Assembly (NCBI GenBank): GCA_000611775.1
Contig: KK106981.1
Coordinates: 7,926,023 to 7,990,022, forward strand
DNA length: 64,000 nucleotides
Source: Umbilicaria muhlenbergii
Lineage: Eukaryota; Ascomycota; Lecanoromycetes; Umbilicariales; Umbilicariaceae
Direction: 5' to 3'
The notes below the pieces were generated by a model. The model was not told the origin of the DNA. It did no database searches and saw only the letters and a list, made by a program, of their open reading frames with translations. This document shows positions 6,116 through 61,514 of the stretch, piece by piece. Position numbers and translations under genes: made by a program. Within the stretch, counting starts at the first letter, position 1. Each line of letters starts with the position of its first letter.

Positions 6116-6811
6116 TCATGACGTTGACGAGGATCTCCCACGTCTCACATCGTTCCACAGATAGGCCATGTCGTTTAGACTCGATGGACGCCGAAGCTGG
6201 TCTTCCTGCTGGTGTTGTTGCTCGTGGTGGATGTCGTTAACCAACGGAGGATTGTCGTTTGACATCCACTGACGCCGTCCAGGAACAAACTCCGTGGCTG
6301 TCGGATTAAGAGCTGGCGCTGATGAGGCTAGCTGCGGAGCCAGCCGACCTTCGATTCGTTCGATGATTCGCTCTTGCTCCTCCCAGAGTCTTGCCCAATC
6401 GGCTCGCTCACTTCGAACAGCCAAATCGGCGACGGCGGTCTCGAAGCTCTCATCTCCAGTCGAGAAAGTCGTACGTACGCTGGCTTCATAAGTGGTTGGC
6501 CCGTGTTGACGACGTACTCGTTCCGCCCTGGCCTGGTCGGCTCGCGCGCGGGCTTGCTGGCTTTCTTGACGTAAAGATTCTACTCTGGATGAGAGTTCCT
6601 CGATGCGACGAAGAGTGGCGTCTGGGGTGTCATGATTCGTGCATCTCAGGCATGGATAGCCAGGTTGGCCGAGAGAAAGCGCTGAGGTCTCGTGAGGAGT
6701 GCCGGTGTTGCTCTGGAGCCCTAGGATTACCCTCAGGTCTTCGTTGCATGAAGATCGGCCAATGGTTTCGGTGTGGCCGCATGACCACGAGTAATGGTAT
6801 TCGATACACAT
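6116..6811 (-). CDS. Met-Cys/CGH family protein, 231 aa (copy A)
   Basis: Hypothetical protein whose N-terminus MCIEYHYSWSCGH is followed by a lone Cys and a CxxC pair (PCLRC, ~54-58), a spacing that suggests one metal-binding knuckle. From ~65 on it is a long Arg/Glu-rich coiled coil (RIEELSSRVESLRQE, and later WEEQERIIERIEGRL) with a polar tail. The same architecture is seen in the frames at 7868-8716 (-) and 59702-59971 (+): Met-Cys-x-Tyr/Phe, a Cys-Gly-His-like triplet ~8 residues on, then CPxC. No named family is recognised. It is either a fungal orphan family or a rapidly diverging one; function unknown. Confidence 0.6.
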   Translation of the reverse strand: MCIEYHYSWSCGHTETIGRSSCNEDLRVILGLQSNTGTPHETSALSLGQPGYPCLRCTNHDTPDATLRRIEELSSRVESLRQESQQARARADQARAERVRRQHGPTTYEASVRTTFSTGDESFETAVADLAVRSERADWARLWEEQERIIERIEGRLAPQLASSAPALNPTATEFVPGRRQWMSNDNPPLVNDIHHEQQHQQEDQLRRPSSLNDMAYLWNDVRRGRSSSTS

Positions 6812-7867: not shown

Positions 7868-8716
7868 TTATCTATTATCCCCATTACTCTCATCCACGAC
7901 ATCCTCCTCTTCCTCTGCGATGGCCACCTGGGTAAGACCCGAAGGACGGTTGCGGCGTTGGCGTGCCTCGTCTCGAGATCGCTGAGTCCTCGAACGGCGA
8001 TCTGGTGTCCAACTTCCGGCGCCCTGGATAAAAGACCCGTGCTCAGCGGTTTGTGGATTGAAGCGAAAGCGGTTGGGCTGGTTCGGTCGATTCGAAGTTC
8101 TGGCTGCTAGACGCCTTGACGCCTCTTCCGCCTCTTGGATCCTTCGCGCTTGCTCCTCCATGAGACGGAGATCTGCCATGATTCGGTCATACTCGTCGTC
8201 GAGCAGAGCGAATGCGCGTTCTTCCCTAAGGTAGATCTCCGCTTGAGCTTCTTGCCAGGTTGGGGGTTGCGGTGCTGGCTGGGTGTTGCTTGGTCCGCTG
8301 ACAGCACGAAGTCTTGCCTCCGCAGACTGCCAAGTCAGTTCTTGCTGTACAGACCGGCTACCATTTGGCCCGCCGACAGCACGAAGTCTCGCCTCCACAG
8401 ACTGCAAAGGCGGGGCTTGTCGTGCAGGCTGGCGGATGCTTGGTCCACTGACATCACGAAGTCTTGCCTCCACAGCGTCGATCGTGATAGCCTCCGGAGC
8501 AACACATCTTGGGCAATTGTACGGGGGTTCGCCGAGGCTAATATGGGCCTGATCCACGCAGTTTGAAGTGTCGATCTGCAAGACGCCTAAACCGGTGATG
8601 AGATGCTGTCTCACGATTTCGTTTTGAAGGAGTCCATTGCCGCATAGCATAGTCATACTGTGGGCGTAGTCCATGTGGTGGCACGTGGGCCAATAGTGAT
8701 AGAAGTATCGACACAT
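7868..8716 (-). CDS. Met-Cys family protein with 25-aa repeats, 282 aa (copy B)
   Basis: The N-terminus MCRYFYHYWPTCHH aligns with copy A (6116-6811), again followed by isolated Cys residues and a CPRC pair (~72-75). Residues ~85-165 hold three in-frame copies of a 25-aa unit with core EARLR(D/A)V(S/G)GP, encoded by a 75-bp tandem repeat. The following segment is helical and charged (LLDDEYDRIMADLRLMEEQ), which resembles the WEEQERIIERIEGRL region of copy A. The C-terminus is Arg-rich and ends in an acidic EEEEDVVDES stretch. Family and function unknown; the shared N-terminus and coil argue that copies A and B are real paralogues. Confidence 0.6.
   Translation of the reverse strand: MCRYFYHYWPTCHHMDYAHSMTMLCGNGLLQNEIVRQHLITGLGVLQIDTSNCVDQAHISLGEPPYNCPRCVAPEAITIDAVEARLRDVSGPSIRQPARQAPPLQSVEARLRAVGGPNGSRSVQQELTWQSAEARLRAVSGPSNTQPAPQPPTWQEAQAEIYLREERAFALLDDEYDRIMADLRLMEEQARRIQEAEEASRRLAARTSNRPNQPNRFRFNPQTAEHGSFIQGAGSWTPDRRSRTQRSRDEARQRRNRPSGLTQVAIAEEEEDVVDESNGDNR
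8255..8480. repeat. 75-bp in-frame tandem repeat, 3 copies
   Basis: Units containing TGACAGCACGAAGTCTTGCC (or near variants) recur at about 8297, 8372 and 8447, a 75-bp period. Being a multiple of three it keeps the copy B frame and encodes the 25-aa repeat. Confidence 0.85.
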
Positions 8717-39333: not shown

Positions 39334-42139
39334 TTGAGAGACAATGAGAAGGCGTCCTGTAAGACAAACACTTCTGTCATGTTGCCACCCTCTGAACACG
39401 TTTTCTTGAACTTCTTTTTATATCTGAGTGATAAAATCTTTGAATGGCTCGAACATATCCTGCAATTTTGCGTCAGGCTTGAAGCTATCATCTTCTTCCC
39501 GGCCGTGGCCTTTGAGATTTCCCCGTTTGCTAACTGTCCAGAATCTAAGCCCATAGGACAGTTGCAAAACGTCGCCTCTGTTGGTAAGAGCGTGGCTGTC
39601 AATACACACGTCGTTGGAGAGAATACAAAGCAGATGCACTCGCTCGGTCGGCACACGGCCGTCACTGGGCCCCGGATTAGACGCAAGCCTCTAAGCTCGG
39701 ACGGAACACCTCACAGTCGTGTCGGATCTATAGCATTCCAAGATGCAAATACCGTCTCCTGGGTTGTAGAAGAGGAGCTCAACGGGATCGATTTGGAGAA
39801 CATTCCATGGCAGGACTACGACATTCCCGAAGAGCTTATGCAGGCACTAGCAAACACACCCCTGGAGATCCTTAATATTGTGAGAGAATCCATCGACAAC
39901 CGGCGGGCTCTGAAAGCGTCAATATCTGCCGAGGCACCCCGTTTGGCTTCAAATACCACTCCTGGTGTCAATCCGGTCAGCACAGGAGACTACTCAGCCG
40001 CCCAAAGCCCGACTACCACTGTAAGCCAACGGGTTGTGTCCGAATATTCGGCATCCACGGTGGGCTCTACGAACCCAAGCCGCTCGTCAAGTCCAAATGA
40101 GGCGACAGAGTCAACGACCACGCTAGGTTCTAGCACTGATGATGAATCAAGGGAATCTCATCATCTGGATGTCCCCTTACACACTCTGAGCTTACGACAT
40201 ACAACGCAGCACGAAAGCCTAAGGACCGACAAATCCAAACTCCAGAAAAGTCGCCCGAAGGCCTTCAAAGATCGTGGACTAGCCAGGCTTTTTAGATCTC
40301 GCAATACTGCAAAACCCGACCTTGTGACGCCTGAAGCAGCTGATAGCGAGCCCACCAGCTTTAGTGAGTGTGCAAGCTGTTTCGAGGACATTCCCAATAC
40401 CAAGAGCGCAAGCCTTGCTTGTCAGCACAAGTATTGTTCTCCCTGCTTCGTGCAGCTAGTTCGGACTGCCATGCAAAACGAAAACTTCTTCCCACCAAAG
40501 TGCTGCCTCCAGGAGATCCCCAGAGCCACGATACGTACCCACATGCCAATCAAAGATTTCGCTCAATTTGACGAAAAGGCACAAGAGTATGCGGTCCCAA
40601 CAGGCTCACGGTGGTATTGTTCATCGCCGCGATGCGGAAAGTGGATAAAAACAGGGAAGCGTCTTACATCCGCAACACTAGTCTGCCCGCACTGTAAGTT
40701 TTCGATGTGTACGTCTTGTCGAGGGTCTACGCATAGCCTTACGGAGGACTGCCCTGAAGATCGGGGTCTTGGGGCGACGCTTGAGGAAGCGGAAAGAGAG
40801 GGCTGGCGGAGATGCTATAACTGTCGATCCATGGTCGAACTTGCGACTGGCTGCAGGCACATTACATGCAAATGCAAAGCTGAGTTCTGGTACGTCAAGG
40901 GTACTTTTAATCTTTATGAGTCTACTAAGTTTTGCTAGCTATACATGTGGAGCTCGGTGGAGGACCTGCGCTTGCACAGAGGATGATCAGACTAGGCGAC
41001 GGAATGCACTACGAGCGACACGCCAGGTTCAGACTGCCGAAGCACGAGCTGAAGAGGCTGAAGTGAGAGAAGCCATTGCAGCTGTTGAAGCAGCAGAGCG
41101 CCAAGAAGCTGAAGAGAATGTGCGTAGACTAAGAGAAAGAGTGGCAGAAGCAGAAGCCCAACAAGCCAGACTTGCTCGTTTGGTGGAGGAACTAGAGAGC
41201 AAGAGACGAAACGGCATTACGACCCACTATCAATATCTTCGAAACGCACTCCGCGATCTACACACATCTCATCGAAAGGCATTGGCCAAACGCTTCGAGT
41301 CTGATAAGCATAGAATAGCCAGAGCAAAAGAGGCTTGGACTTTCGATCAACAATCCCAAGCGGCCGAGATCGAGTGCGAGAGAGCGAACGTCCACAGTAA
41401 AAAGGAAATCGTCATGCAAGAACTCCGACAGAAGCAAGCGAAAGAGATTTCCGAAATCGTTGCAAGGCAAAAGGTGGACGAAGATACATTTTCCGCGCGA
41501 CTGAACGACGAGTTGGAAAATGCGATTCCGAAGCTTGACTCCATGGAGAGGCTGTGGGAAGTGCAGAGGAACGAACGTGCTACGCTGAGAATGCATCAGA
41601 ACCAAGATTTACAGAAATGGCAAGATCGCTGTGCAGCTGGGATCTTCGCCGTGGAGGAAAGGTTGAGACAGCAGCAAGAGAAAATGGAAAAGCAGTTCCA
41701 TACCGAAGTCGACGGAGAAGAATTTACGAGACATGTTTTTGCTGCTCGCAAATGGTATGAGGTTCTTACCGAGGAGCAACAAGGGATGCTTGATGCAGAC
41801 GAGCGCCATCATCTGGAGTCGGGAGCAGACGCACCAAGCCGAGATTCACATGCAGCGGCGGATGAAGCTTCAGCGGCGAGTATCTCAGCACAAGGCGCCG
41901 CGGACACCGACGGTAGCACGGCTCCAGCAATTTCTGCGTCCAAAACACCATTCTATGGTGATTCATTCACAGAGCACTCACCATCCTTGGATGCAAGTAA
42001 AGCACTCGCTCATGGAGCCTCGCGGTCCGAAAGGCATGAGCTTCGAAGACGCCACCCGCCAAGGTCTTGTATATTAGATCGTCCACGGCCCCTAAGAGTA
42101 AGTCACAGAGCCTCTTTGCAAGCAAGTACGGGTCAGTGA
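39334..42139 (+). CDS. RBR-type (RING-IBR-RING) E3 ligase with coiled-coil tail, 918 aa
   Basis: Probable ubiquitin ligase of the RING-in-between-RING class. Model: join(39334..40889,40939..42139), a 49-nt GT-AG intron that falls inside RING2; splicing turns EFW into EFCYTCGARW and restores the last two zinc ligands. RING1 starts at ~346 (CASCFEDIPN, ACQHKYCSPC). IBR: RWYCSSPRCGKWI, LVCPHCKFSMCTSCRG. RING2 (~494-540): RCYNCRSMVELATGCRHITC, with the catalytic-type Cys next to GCRHITCKC. A long coiled coil follows (~545-790), rich in Glu/Ala/Arg (EARAEEAEVREAIAAVEAAE), then a Ser/Thr-rich tail. The first ~100 residues are hydrophobic and atypical; a start at the Met at 39634 is equally possible. 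Confidence 0.85.
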
Positions 42140-42632: not shown

Positions 42633-43061
42633 CTATCGATATCTTCCCGACAGTTCCTGATTCCGCGTAATCACCTCAACAGCATCACGACTCGCACGGC
42701 GTTTCAGAAAGAAAAGCAGAGGTCCAGTGTTGGCAGCCGTGAAGACAGTTGTAGCAGGGAAACGTGCATCATGAGCATCCAACCATCTGATCTCCAACGC
42801 CGAAACGCCGTCATTCGAAGGGATGCCAGTTAGGTTGTTAACGTCCAACTGGCGGAAAGCTGCGAGAACTTGTGCTTTCAATGCATCCAAAGACGTGTTC
42901 AGACCAACGGTGATGAAGATGTGTGATATGTCCATGTCTTTCAGCCGCACGAGGAGTGGGACAGAGTTTTCATCTGCCGGAGTTGAAGGCTGGGTCGAGG
43001 GAGCTGGGGGGGTTGAATATAATTGGCCCCTATTGGAAAGCTGTAGTACTCGATCAACCAT
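42633..43061 (-). CDS. Small hypothetical protein, shared alpha/beta module (copy 1), 142 aa
   Basis: Single exon starting MVDRVLQLSNRGQLY. After a Pro/Ser linker the rest looks like one compact domain: a strand (HIFITVGL), a helix (LDALKAQVLAAFRQLD), a strand (ALEIRWLDAH), a loop with TTVFTAANT, and a last strand (PLLFFLKRR). The order strand-helix-strand-loop-strand also fits frames at 43596, 48587 and 58539. No named family is recognised; the layout recalls a small beta-grasp-like fold, which is inference only. It is head-to-head with copy 2. Confidence 0.55.
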   Translation of the reverse strand: MVDRVLQLSNRGQLYSTPPAPSTQPSTPADENSVPLLVRLKDMDISHIFITVGLNTSLDALKAQVLAAFRQLDVNNLTGIPSNDGVSALEIRWLDAHDARFPATTVFTAANTGPLLFFLKRRASRDAVEVITRNQELSGRYR

Positions 43062-43595: not shown

Positions 43596-44216
43596 ATGGC
43601 GTCCCGTGCACCCAATGTCGACATGGAAACTCAGACTGTGTCCGCGAATGACCCCAGCGTTGGGCACACAGCATCGGCGACATATGGAGGACCTATTCCA
43701 AGTAGTCCGCAGCAGCCACGCGAAACCTCAATTCCTGCCCCCCGCTGCTCCTTTCGAGTCTTCCCAAACCAGGGTCTCGAGATTGATTTCAAAGCCATCT
43801 CAGCCATTCAAGATACGCCGTCAACTCCATCTTCCTCCGAAACAGATCGTCGAGTCCCCATCGTCGTGGCCGTGAACGTCTCCGGAAGAACCAAAATTAT
43901 AAATGCTTTCGGGCTTCCGAGTCAAACGATATGGGAACCCAACTTATCTCACGAAGTGCTCCTTGTGGACCCCTCTACCGCTACTGTTCTTAGGTTGAAG
44001 GAAATGATGTTAGACGTCTTCCTCACGGGCAGCACATACCGGGATCGAGGGAATGTCATGCCTGCGGATTTGGAAGGGCTGTCGGAGGTGCAGGACCTTT
44101 ATCCTTATCGGAAAGATGGGCTGAAGGTCTGGGTGCATGAAGCGAATGTGCAGGCGGTGTTGAGGCTTGTTGGGGAGAGTAAGGGGAAGCAGGTGTTGCA
44201 TGTGGTATTGAAATAG
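43596..44216 (+). CDS. Small hypothetical protein, shared alpha/beta module (copy 2), 206 aa
   Basis: Starts MASRAPNVDMETQTVSANDP. The N-terminal ~85 residues are Ser/Pro-rich. Then come RRVPIVVAVNVSGRTKIINA (strands), TATVLRLKEMMLDVF (helix), DGLKVWVHEANVQAVLRL and a closing strand KQVLHVVLK. The final part matches the layout of the 42.6-, 48.6- and 58.5-kb genes (strand with Trp, a polar loop, a hydrophobic helix or strand, a final Val-rich strand). Membership is weaker than for the 48.6/58.5-kb pair. Function unknown. Confidence 0.55.
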   Translation: MASRAPNVDMETQTVSANDPSVGHTASATYGGPIPSSPQQPRETSIPAPRCSFRVFPNQGLEIDFKAISAIQDTPSTPSSSETDRRVPIVVAVNVSGRTKIINAFGLPSQTIWEPNLSHEVLLVDPSTATVLRLKEMMLDVFLTGSTYRDRGNVMPADLEGLSEVQDLYPYRKDGLKVWVHEANVQAVLRLVGESKGKQVLHVVLK

Positions 44217-48586: not shown

Positions 48587-49681
48587 ATGTCTACTAGCCG
48601 AAGTCGTGATTGCGGTCGCGGCGGTAGCAGAGGAGGAAGAACCTGTTATCGCTGCGGAGGAGAAGGGTATATCGTCCGTGACTGTCCGCAGAAAGGAGAC
48701 ACTGGACGCACATCCCGCACGAATCTCGGCGGCGGCGACGGTGCCGGTGGAAATGTGGACCTCACTGGGAGTCCAGAATCTCCTACGGTTCGTGGCCGCG
48801 GCCAAACCAAATACTACGAGGGAGAAGAACAAGAACAAGCTTCATTTGCTCAGGGAGGGGTACGGGATCTACCAAATGACGAGCCACTCGTTGCGGCCGA
48901 GGAGACTTTGAATTGGGATCAACCCGAAGCCTCCGTACCGGCCGAGGAGACTTTGAACTGGGATCAACCCAAAGCCCCCGTACCGGCCGACGAGACTTTG
49001 AATTGGGATCAGCCTAAAGGAGACGAATCGTCTACGAGAGCTGGCGAGACACTGAACTGGGAGCAACCGCATGCGCAATGGCGTCAACCAAACGACGAGG
49101 CCTTCACTGAGGCCAACGAGACGTTGAACTGGGAGCAACCGCACACGCAGCGAGACAAAAAGATTCTCCCCGCCGCCTCCTCCAGTAGACCGAACCCCCA
49201 TCTCGGGGGCCACCAAGCGAAGCAAGACCATTCAACCAGGTTCAAGCCTCCGCCCCACACCCAACCAAACCCGCCGCCCGCTTTCTCAGACCCCCTTAAT
49301 TCAAACCCCGCCGTCCCACCCACCGACAATTTACTCGGCCAATCCAACTACGAAGGCCATATCAACTTGCCCGTCATAGTCAGCACGCCCGAAGACCTCG
49401 GCGACCAGCGCGCCGTCGTCTTCGTCTGGCCGAAAGAAGGATATGCAGCTCTGCGGCATAGGCTGGGGAGGGTGTTTGGACTAGAGATGGAGATCGGGGT
49501 GGGGGTTAAGTGGAAGCGCGGGGCGGATGAGAAGTGGTTTCCCGAGAGGACGTATTTGGAAGAAGAGAATTTCGAGGGGGTGGTGGCGTTGGTGGGGAGG
49601 AGGGGCGGTGGGGATGTGGTTGTTGTGTTTAGGGAGATGGGAGGGGCGGGGAGAGAGGGGAAGGGAAGGGGGAGGGGGTGA
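48587..49681 (+). CDS. Zinc-knuckle-like protein with ETLNWDQP repeats, 364 aa (module copy 3)
   Basis: Single exon. N-terminus: an Arg/Gly-rich tract (SRGGRT), then CYRCGGEGYIVRDCPQ, a CCHC zinc knuckle in which the His is replaced by Tyr. Residues ~103-190 contain five copies of an octamer ETLNW(D/E)QP spaced ~13-20 residues apart. A Pro/Asn-rich linker leads to a C-terminal domain: AVVFVWPKEG (strand), YAALRHRLGRVFGLE (helix), VGVKWKRG (strand), PERTYLEEENFEGVVALVG and DVVVVFRE (strand). This domain aligns by eye with the 58.5-kb frame, sharing R-T-x-L-x(2-4)-N and D-V-(V/I). RG and knuckle suggest RNA or single-strand nucleic acid binding; this is inference. Confidence 0.7.
   Translation: MSTSRSRDCGRGGSRGGRTCYRCGGEGYIVRDCPQKGDTGRTSRTNLGGGDGAGGNVDLTGSPESPTVRGRGQTKYYEGEEQEQASFAQGGVRDLPNDEPLVAAEETLNWDQPEASVPAEETLNWDQPKAPVPADETLNWDQPKGDESSTRAGETLNWEQPHAQWRQPNDEAFTEANETLNWEQPHTQRDKKILPAASSSRPNPHLGGHQAKQDHSTRFKPPPHTQPNPPPAFSDPLNSNPAVPPTDNLLGQSNYEGHINLPVIVSTPEDLGDQRAVVFVWPKEGYAALRHRLGRVFGLEMEIGVGVKWKRGADEKWFPERTYLEEENFEGVVALVGRRGGGDVVVVFREMGGAGREGKGRGRG
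48897..49145. repeat. Five degenerate in-frame repeats encoding ETLNWDQP
   Basis: GAGACTTTGAATTGGGATCA and variants recur five times, first at ~48-bp spacing (copies 1-3 nearly identical), then at ~60 and ~69 bp with GAGCAACC in place of GATCAACC. Confidence 0.85.
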
Positions 49682-49999: not shown

Positions 50000-50568
50000 A
50001 TGACAAACACTTCACCTCCAACGTCAACTGTCGACGACCTCAAGAAGCAGCTCGAACCAATCCTCGCCAAAATTCGAGCGCTCCGAGCAGAAATCGAGAC
50101 CCTCGAAAACAAGAACCGCCAGCGCTACATCGCCGCGCAGTCGTTGGTGGTGAACGGGAAACCAAACGCTAGAGGGTCAGAAGCTATGGAAGCTGTCAGC
50201 GACCACCACCATGCTGTCAGCCGGCTGAAGTTGCGGATTCAATACCTGGGGAAGTTTGAGGAGAAGTTGAATCGGCAGGTATGTTTCGGGAGGTAGCCCC
50301 TCAAGATGAACACTGTGTATTGGAGTCGTTACTGATGAGTTAGTAGATTTCTGTATTGATGGGAAAGAAGTTTCCAGAGGTCGACGAGGATGGGTCGGGC
50401 GAGGAGAAAGACGCTGTTGCTGGGAGGAAGGCCCCGCTTTCGGAAAGACAGATAATGAAGGCCGGAGGGAGCGGTGAGCAGGTGAAGCTGGAGCCGGTGT
50501 CCAAGAGCGAAGGGAAACCGATGGATCTCACTGAAAATGGATTGGCAAAACTGTCTTTGAGTCAGTGA
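50000..50568 (+). CDS. Small coiled-coil array gene 1, 166 aa, 2 exons
   Basis: Model: join(50000..50278,50347..50568), 68-nt GT-AG intron, phase 0. Exon 1 encodes a coiled coil (DDLKKQLEPILAKIRALRAE, IETLENKNRQRY; later AVSRLKLRIQYLGKFEEKLN). Exon 2 begins with Ile (ISVLMGKKFPEVDED) and is polar and charged, ending LTENGLAKLSLSQ. No domain is recognised. It is the first of a set on this strand (50.0, 53.2, 54.9, 55.8 and 57.0 kb, plus two decayed loci) with a helical exon 1, a phase-0 intron, and an exon 2 opening with Ile. Confidence 0.65.
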
Positions 50569-51459
50569 GCGTGGATTAGGATTTGAGGCTGCATGATAGG
50601 TAGTAGCTTGTGGTGCACTTGATCGAGCGGAGAGGTGTTTGTGGTGATAGACGGCTACGGCATCAGGGTGCGGGTGCAATGGAGTAGTCTGATCTCGACT
50701 GTGACACTGGAGTTATTCCATTGGTTCTAGTGTGCAGCTTCGATGAGCCAAATGGTCCTGCAGATAGTGTTATCGGTCGTCCTCCTGGGTTCTCTCTGGC
50801 GGATACTTCTCCAAACATACTCGTCGTGAAACCATTATGGAACCTGCTAACTGTGTCAGCTTGGTAGGCAACTACATTCTGTCAAAGCAAAGCAGCCCCG
50901 GGGCCATCCCCAGACTACATCCCCTGACTAGCATATCAGATCCTCCAGTCTCTATACATGCATACTCAACTCACTGCGCTGGCACGCAAAAGAGATGATT
51001 GAGTCTCTGCACTTGCGCACTTGCACACTTGACTGACTGCGGAGAAGCCTTGCTACCGCTCTGCCCAAGAAGAGGAAGAGGCTACGGAGGGCTTTATCAA
51101 TAAACTGAAATCCACGCTGGTGAGAATGCAACAGCTATTTTCCAGCGTGAGGACGAGAAGTATTAGGTAAGTTGAATGTTCAGCACATGTATGGTGTTCT
51201 GGCTGGCAGCAAAGGCAACTTACTGAGGCGCAGTAGTTTGCAGAGGAGAGCAGAATGACAGGCTGGTGAATAGGAGGGATACGCTCGGACCACCCGGTGG
51301 TCTTCTCCCGTTAGGGCTAGCCGATCGGCGTCGCACAACGTGTTGGCTGAAGAATCCATTTCCCACTCCATCTCTGCACATATCTCGACTTATCTTCACC
51401 TCCACCAATACTCATCTGTTCTCGTCACCATAGCCAGCATCGAGACTGTACGTCTCACC
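50569..51459. other. Intergenic, nothing supported
   Basis: 890 bp without motif-bearing frames; a GCACTTGC-type short repeat at about 51010-51030. Confidence 0.4.
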
Positions 51460-51989
51460 ATGGAGATGCTATCTTCCCCTTCGGCAACTTAAGAGCTTCA
51501 CGAAGTCCAAAACATCGTTCACCAAACGCTTGCCGATATCAGCGCAAATCACGAATGATGTCACGAAGAATACAGAGAGATTCTACAGTATTTGCCACAA
51601 TACGTGCTCTTAATTTCAGCCGACCCTAACCACCCTAATTGGCTGACCTGGAGGTTGTAGCAATGGCATTGGTACCTGGCACAAGAAGGATTAGAAAGAC
51701 CTTACCAGGAGATGGAGATGTGGACAGAGAAGTGCTCGGAGACATTCAATGCAGTACGTGGCTACCTTTCTTCCACTGCAACGCGCTCAGCTGATTAGAT
51801 GGCATGATCAGCTGTTGATGTGGCTGCTGAGATTTGATATGGAGAAGGCGCTCGCGGATGAAAATGGCCAATGAGAAGTATATGACCGACGAGGGGTATA
51901 TGACTGATGAGAAGGATATGACCAATGACGAGGAAATGACAGACGAGGAGGAAACGACCGCTGAGGCAGAGGGAGGGCAAGCACTCTAG
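51460..51989 (+). pseudogene. Probable decayed coiled-coil array gene 2
   Basis: From the ATG at 51460 one frame reads as a helical, polar protein (ELHEVQNIVHQTLADISANH, then CHEEYREILQYLPQY), interrupted by two stop codons (about 51490 and 51556). A 57-nt GT-AG phase-0 intron could follow, and QWHWYLAQEGLERPYQEMEM continues in frame after it. The 3' part, in another frame, holds an acidic tandem repeat (YMTDEG, DMTNDEEMTDEEE) ending at the TAG near 51989. Its assignment to the family rests on position, size and helical composition; exon 2 does not open with Ile. Alternative: unrelated orphan or non-coding. Confidence 0.35.
51878..51962. repeat. Degenerate 15-18-bp tandem repeat encoding MTDE-like units
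   Basis: TATATGACCGACGAG, TATATGACTGATGAG, GATATGACCAATGACG and GAAATGACAGACGAG follow each other, about four degenerate copies. Confidence 0.65.
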
Positions 51990-53071
51990 AGTTGCAGGAC
52001 ATGTAAGGGTGTAAAGTCATGTCGTACTCACCAGCTACGAGCTTGGTAGGTCGAAGTTACTCGGTCGAACTTACTCAGTCAGAGATAGGTAATTGTGGGT
52101 GGTGATGTCGAAATCAAGCATGCTCACTCATTGCCCTTGAAACAAGTTTGCAACATCATGAATAGACACCTTGTGACTATATCCGTATTATTGTTACACC
52201 GCAACAATTCTCAGCCTGGATGTCAAGCACATGCCACCGTTGAAGGACTATAGCGATCAAACAGGTCAGAACCTCGCTAACTAGGCTCCAACACAACCCT
52301 GCTGGGCAGAAACTAGCGTTGTAATACTTACAACATCACACATGAAAAACCACACGACCATGACCGCTATTTATTCAGATTTCATACTGAGGAGTGGTGA
52401 CCAGGGATACGAACCCGACAAGAGCGTCTAGGCAAAGATTCATGAAAAAGTCAAAGCTAGGAAGAGGCAGCTGAGAGCGGGTTGGGAAAAGATCATTGAC
52501 CACATAAGGGCGGCAAGCACAGGAGCCGAGAGAGGTTGTACAAGTCCCAGATATCAAGATGGCAAGTTACGGGTTTGAGGAAGAGGTTTCAAGAGGTGAA
52601 GCCGCAGGCGGAGAAACTTGAACAAGTAGATCCCTAGATGGGGAGGCTGGTGGCATGAGATGAGGCCAGCGTCTGCGGGAGCGAGAAAACCTGATCTCTC
52701 CGAGTAAGATGATGCCGCGTCTGTTTCAGTATACACGTGGGCTCTTAACTGACATACCATAGTTGGTAACATGCCCGAGGCCGAGGGCGGCCGAGAGACG
52801 GATTGAGACTTCACAGTTCGTGAGTTTCACCACTCAGGTGCCACTGCTGATGAGTTTCATGGCTTTTGAGTCACCGCGGGTTGGGTCCACAGCTTGTGAG
52901 CAGCTCTCGAGTCTCATAACTCTTAGACACCGCTCTTGGGTTTCACGGCTTATGGATTTCACAGGCAACGACTTTGACAAGCTCAAAACATGTGATAAAT
53001 GAAGTGACTTGGACCGGAATGTCCAGTGCATGTGCCAGCAGGAATGAGTCAACAGCGGGTTCTCTGAAGTG
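51990..53071. other. Intergenic, degenerate repeats, nothing supported
   Basis: At 52815-52965, phrases like GAGTTTCA(C/T) and GGGTTTCACGGCTTATGG recur loosely every ~30 bp. No supported gene. Confidence 0.4.
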
Positions 53072-53080
53072 TATATATAT
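53072..53080 (+). promoter_or_regulatory. TATA-like element before coiled-coil gene 3
   Basis: TATATATAT lies about 150 bp before the ATG at 53231. Confidence 0.45.
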
Positions 53081-53230
53081 CTCACTGGAGCACCATCTAT
53101 TGAAATTATCCAACATCCAGCACCGGCAAAGTACATCACATTAGAACGCCTTCCACCAAAATCGTTTGTCACCCAGCACCGACATCCAGCACCGACATCC
53201 CTTAAGCCAGCGACAACAGTATCCGTCAAC

Positions 53231-53676
53231 ATGTCAGATGATAAATACGCAGACGTCCAAGATGAGATACGCCTCGACAATCCACGCAATCCAATCAATG
53301 AGCTTAAAGACGAGCTTACGAAAATCGAGATGGCCCTGATGACTGCGGAGCATAGCGTCAAGCTTGAAAGCTACAGAATTACTCTATATTATCCACTGAC
53401 TCATACTTTGAAAACCCTATATGCAACATATCTCTACAAAGAGACTATTGCCGGAATGGAAAAAGTAGTTGAAACCGGCGCTGAATATGTGAAGGCATTA
53501 AAAGCGAGACGTACTCAGCTCAAGGAACATGTAAGCCTCAGGTTATCATGTTTGTTGAAGGACAAAAGATTGTACTAATCACGTGGTAGATTCCGCAAAT
53601 GAGAGAGCTGAAGAGAAAAATGTTGGCGCAAGAGGCTTCTGCAGAGGAGGTTGCCGCAAGAGGGTCTGCCGCGTAA
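53231..53676 (+). CDS. Small coiled-coil array gene 3, 128 aa, 2 exons
   Basis: Model: join(53231..53530,53590..53676), 59-nt GT-AG intron in phase 0. Exon 1 (100 codons) starts MSDDKYADVQDEIRLDN and contains helices (INELKDELTKIEMALMTAEH; ETIAGMEKVVETGAEYVKAL). Exon 2 (29 codons with stop) opens IPQMRELKRKMLAQEASAEE and ends GSAA. The intron position and the Ile after it match genes 1, 5, 6 and 7, although sequences are otherwise very different. No domain known. Frames upstream of the ATG stay open to 53069, but the TATA-like element makes the later start better. Confidence 0.65.
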
Positions 53677-54184
53677 GAGCCAAAGGGAATGGAAAATGCC
53701 CATTGAGGGTAGTGGTTGCCGTTCCAGTTTGGGAGCAGCCATTGTGGGATGTGGCACATAGGTTTTGGATTTCTGGCAAGCTTTCGGAAAGACCTGCGAA
53801 GCAGGGGGTAATGTCGGGGGAGAGGTTGTTGTAGCATGTGGCTGTCACACAAGTGTTTGAGTTATGACCAGCATTCGGAGACAACTTTCATGCAAGGGGG
53901 GGGTTTGCAGGGGACGTTCTTGGGAAGTACAACATTCATTTCAAAGACCAGATAGCGAAATGCAACATGACTGCTTTATAGGCCTTGCCCTAACACTATT
54001 CCTACAAACCGCAATCCGAAAACGAGTTTCATCACGGCTGTCGCAGTAAACCCAGAAAAGAAGTGACGTGTACAAAGTGCCCGGACCCGCCAACTATATC
54101 ACTCACCGACATTTCTCATATATCCCAACATCTCCCTCCTTACAACCAGCTTCAGCAATCTAAGAGGCCACTTTCTCACCCGCC
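53677..54184. other. Intergenic, nothing supported
   Basis: About 500 bp; no motif-bearing frame. Leader of the next locus is CT-rich (54100-54180). Confidence 0.4.
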
Positions 54185-54595
54185 ATGTCTACTGACCTGG
54201 TTGTCTTCAAGCGAGAACTCGAATTTTTCCAGTCCTCGCATTCGAATCTCAAAGAAAAAGCCCGTCGCCACTGCGAACAACCGCGTCAACGGGATCTTCT
54301 TCTGCAAAGCCTCTCACTCCCCACGGGCCAAAGGACATTGACTTGATTGCCCCGTACGTGCGCGCTTAGGCTCAAAACAGGGAAGAGTTGAGAATGGTCT
54401 CATTGGAGTTGATAGTATTGATTGAGAGGGTCATGCATTATGTAAGTATGCTTGCTGCGAGGTTGGGAAGTGGGATTACTAAGGGGGTTATAGATCTCCG
54501 ATGCATCGAAAAGTGACGGGATAATGGAGATGTTCGACATGGTGGCGTTGGAGAAAGCGGAATTGGAAATAGTAGCATGGAAGAGAGCAGAATAG
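54185..54595 (+). pseudogene. Probable decayed coiled-coil array gene 4
   Basis: The ATG at 54185 opens a 53-codon frame (MSTDLVVFKRELEFFQSSHS) that stops at 54346. A helical stretch then resumes in another frame (NREELRMVSLELIVLIERVM), reaching a phase-0 donor at 54442. A 52-nt GT-AG intron (54442-54493) follows, and exon 2 opens with Ile (ISDASKSDGIMEMFDMVALE) and stops at 54595. Exon structure after the intron matches the family closely, but the two halves of exon 1 are out of frame, so the copy looks broken unless an unseen intron joins them. Confidence 0.5.
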
Positions 54596-54935
54596 GAGAA
54601 AGGTGAGGAGACCAAAACACGAAGAGCCTCAACCGCACGGGCTGATACATCTCATTGATGCAGGAAATTAAGATACCGTCTTCAGAAGATCACGAAAAAG
54701 ATAACAGACCCCGCACCATCAACACTGTAACGTGAAGTACATCAACATCAGTGGCTACCGTAGTGAATGTAATAACACAAAGACTTGTACCAACCTCGTC
54801 TCAGACCATCGATATTCGACTTTTCTCTCGTTAACAATCTCCAAGCAATTCTCGAATCCCCACCACCAAACTCCTAAAGCCTCAAGGCTCTGGACCACAA
54901 CTTCCACACACGACCACATTTTCTCTCGCCTCATC
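54596..54935. other. Intergenic, CT-rich leader of the next gene
   Basis: 340 bp between array copies 4 and 5; CA/CT-rich in its second half, no other feature. Confidence 0.4.
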
Positions 54936-55368
54936 ATGCCCGCCACTCTCAGCCCCAACCCCGAAATCGAGGTCCTCGAACAAAAGCTCAAAGATATCGA
55001 CATCGAGCGCCTCCGCGTCCATAGAGCCTACTTACTCGCCCATGAAACATTACATAATAGCGAGGACATGATTCGGGACCTCGACTCTACGAGGAACTCA
55101 TTAGACGCCGACTCTGTGCGAGAGTTTCGGGATAATCGGAAGAGGGCGGCGCAGTGGATGAAGACTCACAGGGAGGCTATGGAAGTTTTGCTATCGCAGC
55201 GGATAGAAATTAAGCGTCAGGTGGGTGCAGAAACAATGTGTTTCTGGTAGTCTGTGGGGTGGGCTGACTGATGCGTATTAGATTGCGGAGATATGGGAGA
55301 AGGAGAGGATGGAGAGACGTGCATCTGAGAATGAGAAGGCTGGCAAGAAAACCACACGTAGGAAGTAG
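54936..55368 (+). CDS. Small coiled-coil array gene 5, 123 aa, 2 exons
   Basis: Model: join(54936..55220,55282..55368), 61-nt GT-AG intron in phase 0. Exon 1 (95 codons) starts MPATLSPNPEIEVLEQKLKD and is almost wholly helical (IDIERLRVHRAYLLAHETLH; EAMEVLLSQRIEIKRQ). Exon 2 (29 codons with stop, the same size as in gene 3) opens with IAEIWEKERMERRASENEKA and ends in a basic tail KKTTRRK. The open frame extends upstream to 54732, but the CT-rich leader just before 54936 favours the later Met. No known family. Confidence 0.68.
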
Positions 55369-55801
55369 AATGCTGTTTAACCACAGGAGGATTCTGGAAG
55401 TACGTGTTGGAATTCTGTGATGTTGTTATACGGGTAGCTGCATAGCTTGCGGAATTTGAGAAGGAGATAAGCAGGCTCAAACTGCGGAGTCCGGAAAAGC
55501 GTCAAACAGGCAGTGGGATGCTGGTGGTAGATGACGAGAGAACATGAGTCATGGGCTGTAGATGATGTCGTTGCAAACAATATCAAACTAGTCTGTGGCT
55601 GAAAGTTAGTGCGTGACCACTTCTGCCAACAAACGAGAAGACCAGAAGACCTATTGCGAACTGAATTGCCAACGATGTGTTTGCTCCCATGTAAAGTTCA
55701 TAAAACGCCCACCCCTACTCCCTCTAGAATCCAGCCATCTTAAACTCCACAGACATTTCCACCTTTGTCAGTCCTGAACACGGCGGGCATTGCTTCTTTT
55801 C
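55369..55801. other. Intergenic, nothing supported
   Basis: 433 bp between array genes 5 and 6. No other feature recognised. Confidence 0.4.
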
Positions 55802-56176
55802 ATGGCGACCCTCACGACAGCACCCTCGGACGGACTCACCAACCTCAGGCTCAGGCTCGAGGAGATCCTAAGCGAAAAAGCCGAATTGGAAGAATCCTTT
55901 TTCCAAACCTCCTTGATGGGCCTGAAAGAACGTGCGCATCGCCTTGTATCAGAACGACTGGACTACATGATGAAGCTAGAAAGCTTGCTTTTCCAAGAGA
56001 CGGGTGCTAGGAGAGAGGTGCGTTTACGCTGTCTGACTGATTGAACATTTCTGCGAATGCTTATCGTTATGCTAATGGGTCGACGTGCAAAGATTGAAAG
56101 ACTCGAAAAGGAACAGGCGGACGCTCTGTTTAAGATGGACGTGGATGGCGGGAAGGTTGGAGGCACCAAATTCTGA
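55802..56176 (+). CDS. Small coiled-coil array gene 6, 99 aa, 2 exons
   Basis: Model: join(55802..56017,56093..56176), 75-nt GT-AG intron in phase 0. Exon 1 starts MATLTTAPSDGLTNLRLRLE and continues as a heptad-like helix (EILSEKAELEESFFQTSLMG, LVSERLDYMMKLESLLFQET). Exon 2 (28 codons with stop) opens with Ile: IERLEKEQADALFKMDVDGG, ending KVGGTKF. It is the shortest intact member; function unknown. Confidence 0.66.
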
Positions 56177-56972
56177 GGGCTGTGGGAGCCAGGCCGATTC
56201 CACTTGTACTGCTAAAGTCTCGTCCTTCATAGTTCCGAATCCAAGATAGCTTTCCGCCATGAAACAGTTGTCTAAAATCATGGCCTTGGCATACACATCC
56301 CGGGAACAAACTTGCCTTTATGATCATGGACTTCATCGAGCGGAATTGCCTAAACAGCAGGAACAGAAAGTGGACGAAGAGATAGGAGATAGTTTTAGAC
56401 AACATGTGACGTAATCTTGCCCTAATCTATGTATGCCTCTAGACTCTACCTCGGTAGTCCCTGAGGCAGCTGTGGCGGACAATTAACAAGTGACGTTGAT
56501 AGCAGAGCTGGACTGAATAGAGGAACGCATTAGGAAAACCGTCGATACGAGAACGATGCGTACAGGAAGGAAAATTAATAAGAAATGACCTGGTAATAGC
56601 GACCGTCAAAACGAGGAAGTTAAGCGAGAGGCCGGTGTTTCGAGGCAATCAGATCCCGCGGTATCTAGTTTTTGGGTAGAGATCACAGTCGGCTGTCGAA
56701 AATGGTATCCAGACCTGTCGAAGATGTACGAAGGCTTCTCGACGATGGCCCGAGGACAGCAATAAGGCAAGCCATGAGCGGTCTAAGTTATATCAGGCGT
56801 CACCAGATTCTTGCCATTCACAGAAGATGAGTTATCCTCGTAAGTGAATGACCCTACACAAACGTTCTGTTCTTTCGCCTGCACTTTCGCTCAACCGCCA
56901 CAATCTCCAAGTCAACTTCACCTCACAATAAGGTGTATTTCGCAAGTAAAACATAAAGACTCAGTCGTCATC
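56177..56972. other. Intergenic, nothing supported
   Basis: About 800 bp. A minus-strand frame at 56130-56405 has hydrophobic stretches but no support. Confidence 0.4.
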
Positions 56973-57888
56973 ATGGCATCGGACAGCGCAAGGCAATCGT
57001 GGGCGACACAGTCGTGGATGACAGAATCTCTATCGTCGTCCCCAACGTCGCTCTCGCGCGCTTCCTCTCCATGGCCTTTGCAACTCAGGTTCTCCTCCCA
57101 AGCTTCGTCAGAGTTCGGAGATTATGCCTCCACAAACGTGTCAATACCACCATCACCCACCTCAATTCCACTCCCACCTGCGTCACCCAACGAACTAGCT
57201 CCCCCAAAACCTGTCCATCCCATCATCCACCTCAAGGCCGAATTGGAGGATATTCTTGAGTGCCAACGCAGTCTCCGCAAGGACTCCAGATACGTCCAGA
57301 ACAGACTTTACGGTGTCGAATACAAGTTTGGCCCTCATCTCATTAGAGCAGCTCCGCGTAGAGAGGTTGCATACCCTAGCAACGCAGTGGAGCAAGATCT
57401 GGAGAAGGATGCGATCAGACTGGAAGCGAGGCGTCAAGAGCTGGTCAGCAAAGTAAGTGTTCTTCTGGTCGGCGGGTACTGTAGTTCGTGCTGACTTCCG
57501 GATAGATCGCTGAGCTCATGAACCAAGAGGTGAGACAGCCAAACACCAATTTGCGATCGGTCTAGAAATTCTGTATTGACAAACCCAGATCAATGAAATA
57601 AAAAGGGCGAACAACGACAGTGGGAGGTGGAATTTGAAGCATGAAGAGGAGTTGGATAAGACTCGGCAAGACAACGAGGCTGGCAGCACCAATGAGAGAG
57701 AGGCAGAGAAAAGTAAGAATGGCAAAGGAGATGACGAGAGTTACGCAGATGCGGTGGAGCTGCAGGAATGGCAGTATGGCGACGAGAAGGAAGAGGATGC
57801 CGATGTTGAGGAGCAGGATTTTGTTGGAAAGGAACAAGAGGGCGAGAAGACGGAAATCAGAATACAGAGCGAGGTTGGATCCCAGTAA
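56973..57888 (+). CDS. Small coiled-coil array gene 7, 267 aa, 3 exons with a 24-nt micro-exon
   Basis: Model: join(56973..57452,57506..57529,57589..57888), introns of 53 and 59 nt, both phase 0. Exon 1 starts MASDSARQSWATQSWMTESL, has a long Ser/Pro-rich section, then the family-like helix (IIHLKAELEDILECQRSLRK; QDLEKDAIRLEARRQELVSK). Exon 2 is only IAELMNQE and exon 3 opens INEIKRANNDSGRWNL; both begin with Ile right after the intron, as if the exon 2 start had been duplicated. The C-terminal 90 residues are strongly acidic (DDESYADAVELQEWQYGDEK). It is the longest and most elaborate member of the array; function unknown. Confidence 0.66.
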
Positions 57889-58406: not shown

Positions 58407-58538
58407 GAGAGTAGCCACGTTCAGGAGCAGAGATAAGCTGAACAGTGCGTCCAACATCACACCAGTAACAACTTTGGCATCACTCAGCCGGATTCTTCTC
58501 CGATCCACGATACGAAGTATGCCAGGCTAGGGTCAAAA

Positions 58539-58859
58539 GTGATTCGTAAAGCCAAGGTCTCCGAGTTCGGGACGGTCGATTTCTTCGAGTCAAGACATGC
58601 TTTCCCAGCAATGATAAGGTATAGCCACAAGCACATGGTGGTCGTTCTCAATGCCTGGGATAACTTGAATCAACTCTCTGAGGGCTTGAGGGAGCTATTT
58701 CAGTTGGCTCGTGGCCCTGTCGTATCACTGGTCTGGTCCACACAGACCGAGATCACGCCAGCCAGAACTCTGCTAGATCAAGACAACATCATGGCATATC
58801 TGACGCTCTTGAAAGTCAGGTGCGGAATGGATGTTATCGAATTGTTAGGTCCACTCTGA
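58539..58859 (+). CDS. Small hypothetical protein, shared alpha/beta module (copy 4)
   Basis: The open frame runs from 58539 (a GTG codon) to the stop at 58859. The first ATG in frame is near 58611, giving MIRYSHKHMVVVLNAWDNLN and 82 aa; the upstream part may come from a spliced 5' exon not found. The domain reads strand (HMVVVLNAW), helix (NQLSEGLRELFQLAR), strand (VVSLVWST), TPARTLLDQDNIMAYLTLLK, and a last strand (GMDVIELL). It matches the C-terminus of the 48.6-kb protein best. A clear TATA box upstream supports a real transcript. Function unknown. Confidence 0.5.
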   Translation: MIRKAKVSEFGTVDFFESRHAFPAMIRYSHKHMVVVLNAWDNLNQLSEGLRELFQLARGPVVSLVWSTQTEITPARTLLDQDNIMAYLTLLKVRCGMDVIELLGPL

Positions 58860-60285: not shown

Positions 60286-61514
60286 TCAGAGAAAACCAAG
60301 CCAGTGGGATTGAGGGATGTAGCTCCCCTGACGAGGTGCAACAACTGCCGCAGGCCGCCATGTCGAGGGAGTCGTTATCGGCGGAAAAGTGGTGGAGTTT
60401 GCACCGAGTTCGCGATTCCTATTTGCCCGCATCCTTCCTGAACGCGGAAGCGTTAGGTGCACTGCGCCCTGTCGACCGCGTCGATCAGGCGCTAGACTCG
60501 TGCAGAAGCATTGATTCAGCGGAGTAGCAAGACAACCCCAGCAGAATCTTGTTCCGCAGTGAGAGCCTAGTCACCAAGGTCAGCAGAGTATACACAAGCA
60601 CCAGCGAAGGTATTGGCCCCATACAGCTCATGTGGTCACAACCAACCAACTTCTCCACGTAATAGGGGCAGTGTGCCCCGGGGCATTTCTGGATTGGAAG
60701 GCTTGCTAGCAAATCTTTCGAGCGGGCTTCCTCGACATCCGCCCGTTGGTCGTACTCTTCACAGGTGAAATCTTCGTGCCAGGGTACCCCATGATCGAAG
60801 CACATCAGAAATTTGCATATGTGGCAAACCATGAACGCATCGGTCGGATCAGGATGAATTTGGCCATAGCCGCACCCTGAGCGAAGACACCACCGGAAGT
60901 TAGGGTCACGTTCAAGGGTTCGCCGAAGAACCAGATTCTCGAACCTTGTGCTGTCAGCGTAATGGTTTTGACCCCCAAGCGGGGACTATTTCATACCTCT
61001 CGAACACCGGTTTCGGCACTAGATGCTGGATCTGATCATACTGCAGGCGATTAGGACACAGCGGGCAAGAGATATTTTCTGGGCCGACAGCATTCATCTG
61101 CGTTTCAATGTACTGCCGAATGCAACTCCTGCATATTCTCAGAGGGTGATCACAGCTAGGAAAGGCTGAGGCCCGCATGAATGAAGACCATCTACATGGC
61201 TGCCCAAGGTGATAACCCTCTTCCAAGCTGCGGAAGCGGCACTTCCATTTGACCTCGTAACATATGACGCATGTTCGAACGTAGAGGTGGTGTTCGTGTG
61301 GTCTGGGCGTAGGCGCTGCTCCTTTGCGACCGTTGTCAATAGCGGATGTGGCGCTGTGGCTACTTTCCTTTGGGGAAGTAGTATGCCTTTTGTACTTCCT
61401 AGATAGATTTGCCAAAGGGGTCTCTGGGTGGAAGATGCGTCCTGTTGTAAGCCATGTCAAGGCCCCAGAGACAAGAGTTTGGCCGGCTGTTGTAAGAGTC
61501 ATGGTTGAGGTCAC
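60286..61514 (-). CDS. RBR-type (RING-IBR-RING) E3 ligase, 374 aa, 3 exons
   Basis: Probable ubiquitin ligase. Model: complement(join(60286..60566,60625..60950,60997..61514)), GT-AG introns of 46 and 58 nt, sum divisible by three. RING1 starts at ~82 (CVICYEVKW, CDHPLRICRSC, ENISCPLCP). The IBR follows the first join: STRFENLVLRRTLERDPNF, then CLRSGCGYGQIHP, VCHICKFLMCFDHG and FTCEEYD. RING2: KCPGAHCPYYVEKLVGCDHM, then across intron 2 SC|CSHCGTRFCWGC, which restores the zinc ligands. The C-terminus is basic and polar. A TATATA box on the minus strand at 61574-61579, 60 bp upstream, supports the chosen start. It is the second RBR protein of the window; its architecture (no long coiled coil) differs from the 39-kb one. 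Confidence 0.85.

What the first reader, a model, noticed from the sequence alone, without database searches (positions are those of the whole stretch)
50000..57888. Tandem array of fast-evolving coiled-coil genes sharing one phase-0 intron followed by Ile
Five gene models (50.0, 53.2, 54.9, 55.8, 57.0 kb) and one decayed locus (54.2 kb) lie on the same strand. Their protein sequences hardly align, but each has a helical exon 1, one short GT-AG intron in phase 0, and an exon 2 whose first codon is Ile (ISVLM, IPQMR, ISDAS, IAEIW, IERLE, IAELM). Exon 2 is 28-34 codons in four of them. Conserved intron phase and flanking residue in otherwise divergent neighbours is best explained by local duplication and rapid divergence. 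No named family comes to mind, so this may be an undescribed lineage-specific family.
Basis: partly seen in the sequence, partly recalled or inferred. Interest (0 to 1): 0.75.

Follow-up and report, generated by a model that had tools for sequence, protein, structure and literature searches.

The report
Tandem diverged coiled-coil genes sharing intron
A fungal DNA segment carries a row of five intact and one broken small genes, so diverged that their proteins barely align, yet they still share one intron at one place in a helical protein: a real gene family, probably unnamed, of unknown biological role.

Summary
A scan that ignores the residue after the intron finds five ATG–phase-0-intron–stop genes at 50.0-57.9 kb, all on the + strand. 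The first usable acceptor gives Ile in 5 of 5, against 0 of 6 donors elsewhere in the window and a mean of 0.02 in 200 shuffles. Codon usage favours the predicted frame in all 14 exon pieces. Locus 54.2 kb is a broken copy.

Common descent is supported beyond the intron: a shared N-terminal block, and a junction at one heptad register. Leave-one-out profiles recover four members above pattern-keeping shuffles; the fifth is marginal. AlphaFold makes exon 1 of the two genes modelled purely helical. No Pfam or NCBIfam cut-off is reached. No secretion or membrane segment is evident.

Corrections: the 57.0 kb gene probably has two phase-0 introns, both followed by Ile. "Rapid" is not shown; the copies may be old. 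RIP is absent.

Best reading: a birth-and-death family of small intracellular coiled-coil proteins, probably oligomerising. Descent is well supported; function is inferred. No fungal genomes could be searched.

The parts
50000..50568 (+). gene 1: exon 1 50000-50278 (93 codons), intron 50279-50346, exon 2 50347-50568 (73 codons + stop), longer charged tail
   Evidence: phase 0, Ile, in-frame codon usage 0.14 and 0.12, other forward frames negative
53231..53676 (+). gene 2: exon 1 53231-53530 (100 codons), intron 53531-53589, exon 2 53590-53676 (28 codons + stop)
   Evidence: AlphaFold exon 1 one long helix 21-99
54185..54595 (+). gene 3, broken copy: exon-1 start readable, then a stop and a change of frame, intron 54442-54493, readable exon 2 54494-54595 (33 codons + stop)
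   Evidence: its first fragment is the top non-member hit in 2 of 10 leave-one-out domain searches (gene 2 out; gene 4 out), but only rank 31 (E 41) with the five-member profile
54936..55368 (+). gene 4: exon 1 54936-55220 (95 codons), intron 55221-55281, exon 2 55282-55368 (28 codons + stop)
   Evidence: AlphaFold exon 1 two helices 9-52 and 58-94
55802..56176 (+). gene 5: exon 1 55802-56017 (72 codons), intron 56018-56092, exon 2 56093-56176 (27 codons + stop); shortest domain
   Evidence: marginal in the strictest profile control
56973..57888 (+). gene 6: Ser/Pro-rich N-terminal extension, coiled-coil domain from about residue 77, introns 57453-57505 and 57530-57588 (both phase 0, both followed by Ile), 8-codon middle exon, 99-codon acidic tail
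   Evidence: codon usage 0.07, 0.45, 0.22 in frame, other forward frames negative; second intron has no CTRA site, and without it the gene would stop after 19 exon-2 codons
51460..51989 (+). possible older relic: exon-1-like pieces with in-frame stops, phase-0 GTACGT...TTAG at 51754-51798 followed by ATG, not Ile, then an acidic-repeat tail in another frame
   Evidence: codon usage 0.21 near each end, -0.06 to 0.05 between; no profile support (ranks 58 and lower); tentative
52500..52634 (+). possible relic fragment of the junction end of the domain
   Evidence: second-best non-member hit in two of five leave-one-out domain searches, not among the top three in any of five when the alignment was remade; codon usage 0.05; tentative

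Best explanation
A tandem array of paralogs from one ancestral two-exon gene, multiplied locally and diverged to near saturation while keeping a helical coiled-coil domain, with at least one copy dying (birth-and-death). Each intact gene makes a small, soluble, probably intracellular protein: a Pro before a heptad helix (core [ILV]-x2-L-x3-L-x2-I), a variable middle, then a second heptad stretch that runs across the splice junction ([LIVA]-x3-|I-x2-[LIMA]) into a variable charged tail. The most likely way of working is self- or cross-association through the heptads, as adaptor or scaffold, with the tails setting partners. Supported here: gene structure, common descent, helical prediction of exon 1 for two genes, no evident secretion or membrane segment. 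Inferred: oligomerisation, partner choice, any biological role.
For: 5 of 5 array donors with phase 0 and Ile at the first usable acceptor, 0 of 6 donors elsewhere, shuffle mean 0.02. Junction-anchored block scores exceed all 2000 random placements in six of six window sizes, and without the Ile column exceed register-kept jitters (p 0.0000 to 0.036). N-terminal block: 0 of 60 shuffles reach it at widths 14, 18 and 22; 1 of 60 at width 10, where gene 4 falls on another site. Leave-one-out profiles with remade alignments: residue-permuted copies reaching the real score 3, 0, 4, 9, 0 of 500; polarity-pattern-kept copies 3, 0, 2, 38, 0 of 500 (genes 1, 2, 4, 5, 6). Six-frame rank of the left-out gene 1, 1, 12, 3, 1 of 1977, and 1, 2, 3, 3, 1 of 1223-1547 with the fixed alignment. 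Codon usage highest in the predicted frame in 14 of 14 exon pieces. Helix only in AlphaFold. Highest 19-residue hydropathy 0.42.
Against: Whole-protein pairwise alignments are mostly noise: 8 of 10 pairs have z below 2.4, the best is gene 1/gene 6 at 3.1, and only 2 of 10 line up the junctions. Gene 5 is weak in the polarity-kept control (38 of 500). Circularly rotated copies often score as well (248, 16, 173, 10, 310 of 500): expected for local matching, but no support. Leave-one-out E-values are weak (0.025 to 5.4), and N-block profiles alone fail (gene 4 ranks 631 and 433). Some reverse frames have weakly positive codon usage, up to 0.15. No intron similarity (21 pairs, lowest p 0.056), no upstream similarity above z 3, 2 of 15 downstream and 1 of 15 gene pairs at z 3.1-3.3; no shared upstream motif. 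pTM is low (0.36, 0.35), the alignments have five rows, and the two models differ (two helices, one helix). No expression data.
Confidence: 0.7

Rival explanations
1. Convergence: unrelated small coiled-coil genes that by chance carry a phase-0 intron before a core Ile.
For: Pairwise similarity is near noise; heptad patterns alone make coils resemble each other; PMC5633384 states that coiled coils evolve de novo readily (passages).
Against: 5 of 5 Ile against 11 of 180 background; shared N block; recovery above polarity-kept shuffles for four of five genes; same strand, contiguous, no such Ile gene elsewhere in 64 kb under the strict rule.
Confidence: 0.06
2. The genes are remnants of one older array under relaxed constraint: mostly decaying, with little protein function left.
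For: One broken copy and two possible relics among eight loci; extreme divergence.
Against: Five open gene structures with best codon usage in frame in all 11 of their exon pieces after such divergence suggests selection on the product; no RIP signature.
Confidence: 0.12
3. A recognition-type family (allorecognition, killer/antidote, or host-interaction factor) in which divergence itself is selected.
For: Tandem copies, birth-and-death, strong divergence on a kept scaffold; comparable logic in powdery mildew effector candidates (PMC3582587, passages).
Against: No signal-peptide-like or membrane segment by hydropathy; no known domain; divergence rate not measured.
Confidence: 0.12

Closest known systems
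Powdery mildew CSEP / RNase-like (RALPH) effector family
   Same: Sequences eroded almost beyond alignment, argued to share an ancestor partly by a common intron position (PMC3582587, passages; PMC6759760, passages).
   Different: Those are secreted, with an RNase-like structure and, in the wheat mildew Avr proteins, a YxC motif (PMC12830362, one passage). Here: no secretion-like segment, helix only in two models, one Cys in five proteins.
Essential taxonomically restricted proteins of yeast and worm
   Same: Restricted proteins in which essential members have more coiled-coil regions than non-essential ones; many act in chromosome segregation (PMC5633384, passages).
   Different: Those are a functional class found by phenotype, not one gene family (my reading). 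Here: a tandem array without any phenotype, and restriction to a lineage is untested.

Membership tests
Powdery mildew RNase-like (RALPH/CSEP) effectors | N-terminal signal peptide | tested here: not met
   best 11-residue hydropathy in the first 35 residues is -0.29 to 0.95 in the five proteins; hydropathy only, no dedicated predictor
Powdery mildew RNase-like (RALPH/CSEP) effectors | RNase-like fold | tested here: not met
   exon-1 models of genes 4 and 2 (two of five) are helix only; no RNase Pfam match at E up to 1
Powdery mildew RNase-like (RALPH/CSEP) effectors | common intron position across the family | tested here: met
   for this family's own intron; not shown to be homologous to the mildew intron
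Pfam coiled-coil families hit weakly (Prefoldin, ZapB, PspA_IM30, CENP-K and others) | score above the family's curated cut-off | tested here: not met
   best 15.6 bits, all matches of genes 1 and 2 below cut-offs of 23.2-33.9; genes 4, 5 and 6 have no match at E up to 1
bZIP transcription factors (considered for the heptad helix) | Pfam bZIP match | tested here: not met
   no bZIP match at E up to 1
Segregation or kinetochore coiled-coil proteins | localisation or segregation phenotype | not testable with these tools
   needs experiment

The most novel reading that the evidence does not exclude
The array encodes a set of mutually pairing coiled-coil proteins whose heptad specificities have been driven apart, forming a self/non-self or driver/antidote-like code within a fungus.
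Probability: 0.08. Interest if true: 0.8.

Novelty: new member of a known kind. Interest (0 to 1): 0.42.

Why it matters
It is a clear case where an intron position records common descent after protein sequence has nearly lost it, and so a handle (junction register plus N block) for finding a family that ordinary similarity searches would split into orphans. Whether the family is lineage-specific, and what drives its divergence, becomes testable once related fungal genomes are scanned with this two-exon signature.

Tried and rejected
RIP as the cause of divergence or decay: composite index -0.58 in the array against -0.47 in the rest, all eight 1-kb bins of 50-58 kb negative; rejected. Shared promoter element: 6, 15 and 3 of 60 shuffles reach the best motif at widths 10, 14 and 18; not supported. 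Recent unit duplication by intron or flank homology: not found beyond marginal scores. Gene 6 introns 1 and 2 as copies of each other: p 0.78; rejected. PDB by exon-1 profile: 3 matches at E up to 1, best 0.017 to a chain called H12, judged a chance coil match. Foldseek PDB: 0 matches at E up to 10 for the gene-4 model; the gene-2 model was not searched. Rfam: 0 at 49-59 kb. tRNA: 0 in the window. Bacterial promoter/terminator scan: no excess over shuffles, and not meant for fungi. Prokaryote genome scan with gene 4 exon 1: 86 pattern matches, none confirmed. Viral-contig scan with the TIMELESS-like protein, to look for fungal contamination: 9 pattern matches, none confirmed. Short N-block profiles alone are too weak. 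Seven paper searches (one search returned 0) listed no paper that I recognised as describing this family; I saw listings only, except passages of PMC12830362, PMC6759760, PMC3582587 and PMC5633384.

Full report
What was checked. The five models and the broken locus were read from the sequence. Each intact model starts at an ATG, has an exon 1 of a whole number of codons, a first GT-AG intron of 53-75 nt with a CTRA site, and an exon 2 beginning with Ile. A scan of all 64 kb, both strands, that asks for this anatomy but not for Ile found the five genes and six donors elsewhere. The first usable acceptor of each array donor gives Ile (5 of 5); later in-frame acceptors in genes 1, 2 and 4 would give K, R, E. 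None of the 11 candidates elsewhere gives Ile. In 200 shuffles of the array the mean was 0.16 donors and 0.02 Ile donors, and phases 1 and 2 gave none in the array. Under three looser rules Ile appears elsewhere at 1 of 26, 4 of 75 and 8 of 93, near the 11 of 180 background of window pseudo-introns, and a few extra array models appear with other residues; the five stay.

Are they genes? A codon-usage score trained on eleven other ORFs of the window is positive in the predicted frame of all 14 exon pieces tested (three from the broken copy) and negative in the two other forward frames of each; some reverse frames are weakly positive (up to 0.15) but always below the predicted frame of the same piece. 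Seven intergenic stretches score negative in all six frames, in part because stops are penalised. I chose the training ORFs as long or conserved; two overlap by 20 bases. Gene 6 needs a correction: reading on past the first 8 codons of exon 2 meets a stop after 19 codons in all, while a second phase-0 intron (57530-57588) leads into 99 open codons with codon usage 0.22, again starting with Ile and with hydrophobic residues at the same spacing. That intron is less certain: donor GTGAGA and no CTRA site.

Are they one family? Whole-protein pairwise alignments are nearly noise, and identity to gene 4 or gene 2 in exon 1 is 14-28%. Signals appear when the sequences are anchored. Around the junction all six loci show [LIVA]-x3-|Ile-x2-[LIMA], consecutive core positions of a heptad (read). 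Junction-anchored block scores of the five intact genes exceed all 2000 random placements, and with the Ile column dropped still exceed register-kept jitters (p 0.0000 to 0.036 by window size). Without anchoring, the best common block is N-terminal, P-x3-[VIL]-x2-L-[KRE]-x2-L-x2-I, 65-89 residues before the junction; 0 of 60 shuffles reach it at widths 14, 18 and 22, and 1 of 60 at width 10. Profiles built from four members, realigned without the fifth, score the fifth above residue-permuted copies (3, 0, 4, 9, 0 of 500 reach it for genes 1, 2, 4, 5, 6) and above copies that keep the hydrophobic pattern (3, 0, 2, 38, 0 of 500), so genes 1, 2, 4 and 6 are recovered by more than coiled-coil pattern; gene 5 is marginal. 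Rotated copies often match as well (248, 16, 173, 10, 310 of 500), which is uninformative for local matching. The left-out gene ranks 1, 1, 12, 3, 1 among 1977 six-frame fragments; the E-values are weak (0.025 to 5.4 with the fixed alignment). The start of the broken gene 3 is the top outside hit in 2 of these 10 searches, though only rank 31 with the five-member profile.

What are they? No Pfam or NCBIfam model reaches its cut-off (spliced proteins, exon 1). AlphaFold on exon 1 gives two helices for gene 4 (mean pLDDT 78.8, pTM 0.36) and one long helix for gene 2 (81.1, 0.35), from five-row alignments: helical, probably coiled coil, with no reliable tertiary arrangement. Exon 2 was not modelled, because the spliced protein is not a contiguous translation. 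Foldseek found no PDB match for the gene-4 model. There is no strongly hydrophobic segment; charged residues are 31-41%; one Cys in five proteins. So: small soluble, probably intracellular coiled-coil proteins with variable tails. That they oligomerise and act as adaptors is inference from anatomy.

How did they arise? Local duplication and birth-and-death: six loci on one strand in 8 kb, one broken, and two weak candidates at 51.46-51.99 and 52.50-52.63 kb. RIP, which hits fungal duplicates (recalled), has left no signature. Introns and upstream flanks do not align, and downstream flanks only marginally, so the duplications are either old or followed by very fast change. One genome cannot decide; 'fast-evolving' stays unproven.

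What is known. Using a shared intron to recognise a family eroded in sequence has precedent in powdery mildew effector candidates (PMC3582587 and PMC6759760, passages), but those are secreted and RNase-like, so this is not a member. Essential taxonomically restricted proteins of yeast and worm have more coiled-coil regions than non-essential ones, and many act in chromosome segregation (PMC5633384, passages), which makes structural or segregation roles a fair guess and no more. That the window is from a filamentous ascomycete is my judgement from its TIMELESS, MGM101 and IBR matches and short introns; no call names the organism. No fungal genome or proteome collection was available, so 'undescribed' rests only on Pfam, NCBIfam, PDB and seven paper searches.

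Noticed in passing
6116-6811 (-) and 7868-8716 (-): Two neighbouring same-strand ORFs are diverged paralogs (local score 104, 0 of 300 shuffles reach it), with a Cys/His-containing start and a shared LGxPxYxCxRC motif; no Pfam match at E 0.001 for the first (the second was not searched).
   Followed up: partly
42633-43058 (-), 49187-49678 (+), 58500-58859 (+): A second scattered, diverged family around the array, sharing W...P-x-[RT]-T-x-[FL]-x3-N (pairs reached by 1, 2 and 0 of 300 shuffles; a fourth ORF at 43596 did not join, 50, 12 and 217 of 300). Perhaps beta-grasp or PB1-like by eye (recalled); no Pfam match for the shared part.
   Followed up: partly
39379-40935 (+) and 60485-60832 (-): Two IBR-domain ORFs (RBR-type E3 ligase-like) lie on either side of the array on opposite strands; relation to the array unknown.
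   Followed up: no
48587-49681 (+): ORF with a zinc-knuckle-like start (17.4 bits, below the Pfam cut-off of 20.8) and five ETLNW[DE]QP repeats.
   Followed up: no
57506-57588: Gene 6 has an 8-codon exon between two phase-0 introns that are both followed by Ile; the two introns share no detectable similarity.
   Followed up: partly
51831-51989: Acidic tail-like repeat (YMTDE units) with codon usage 0.21 in one frame, next to the possible relic.
   Followed up: partly
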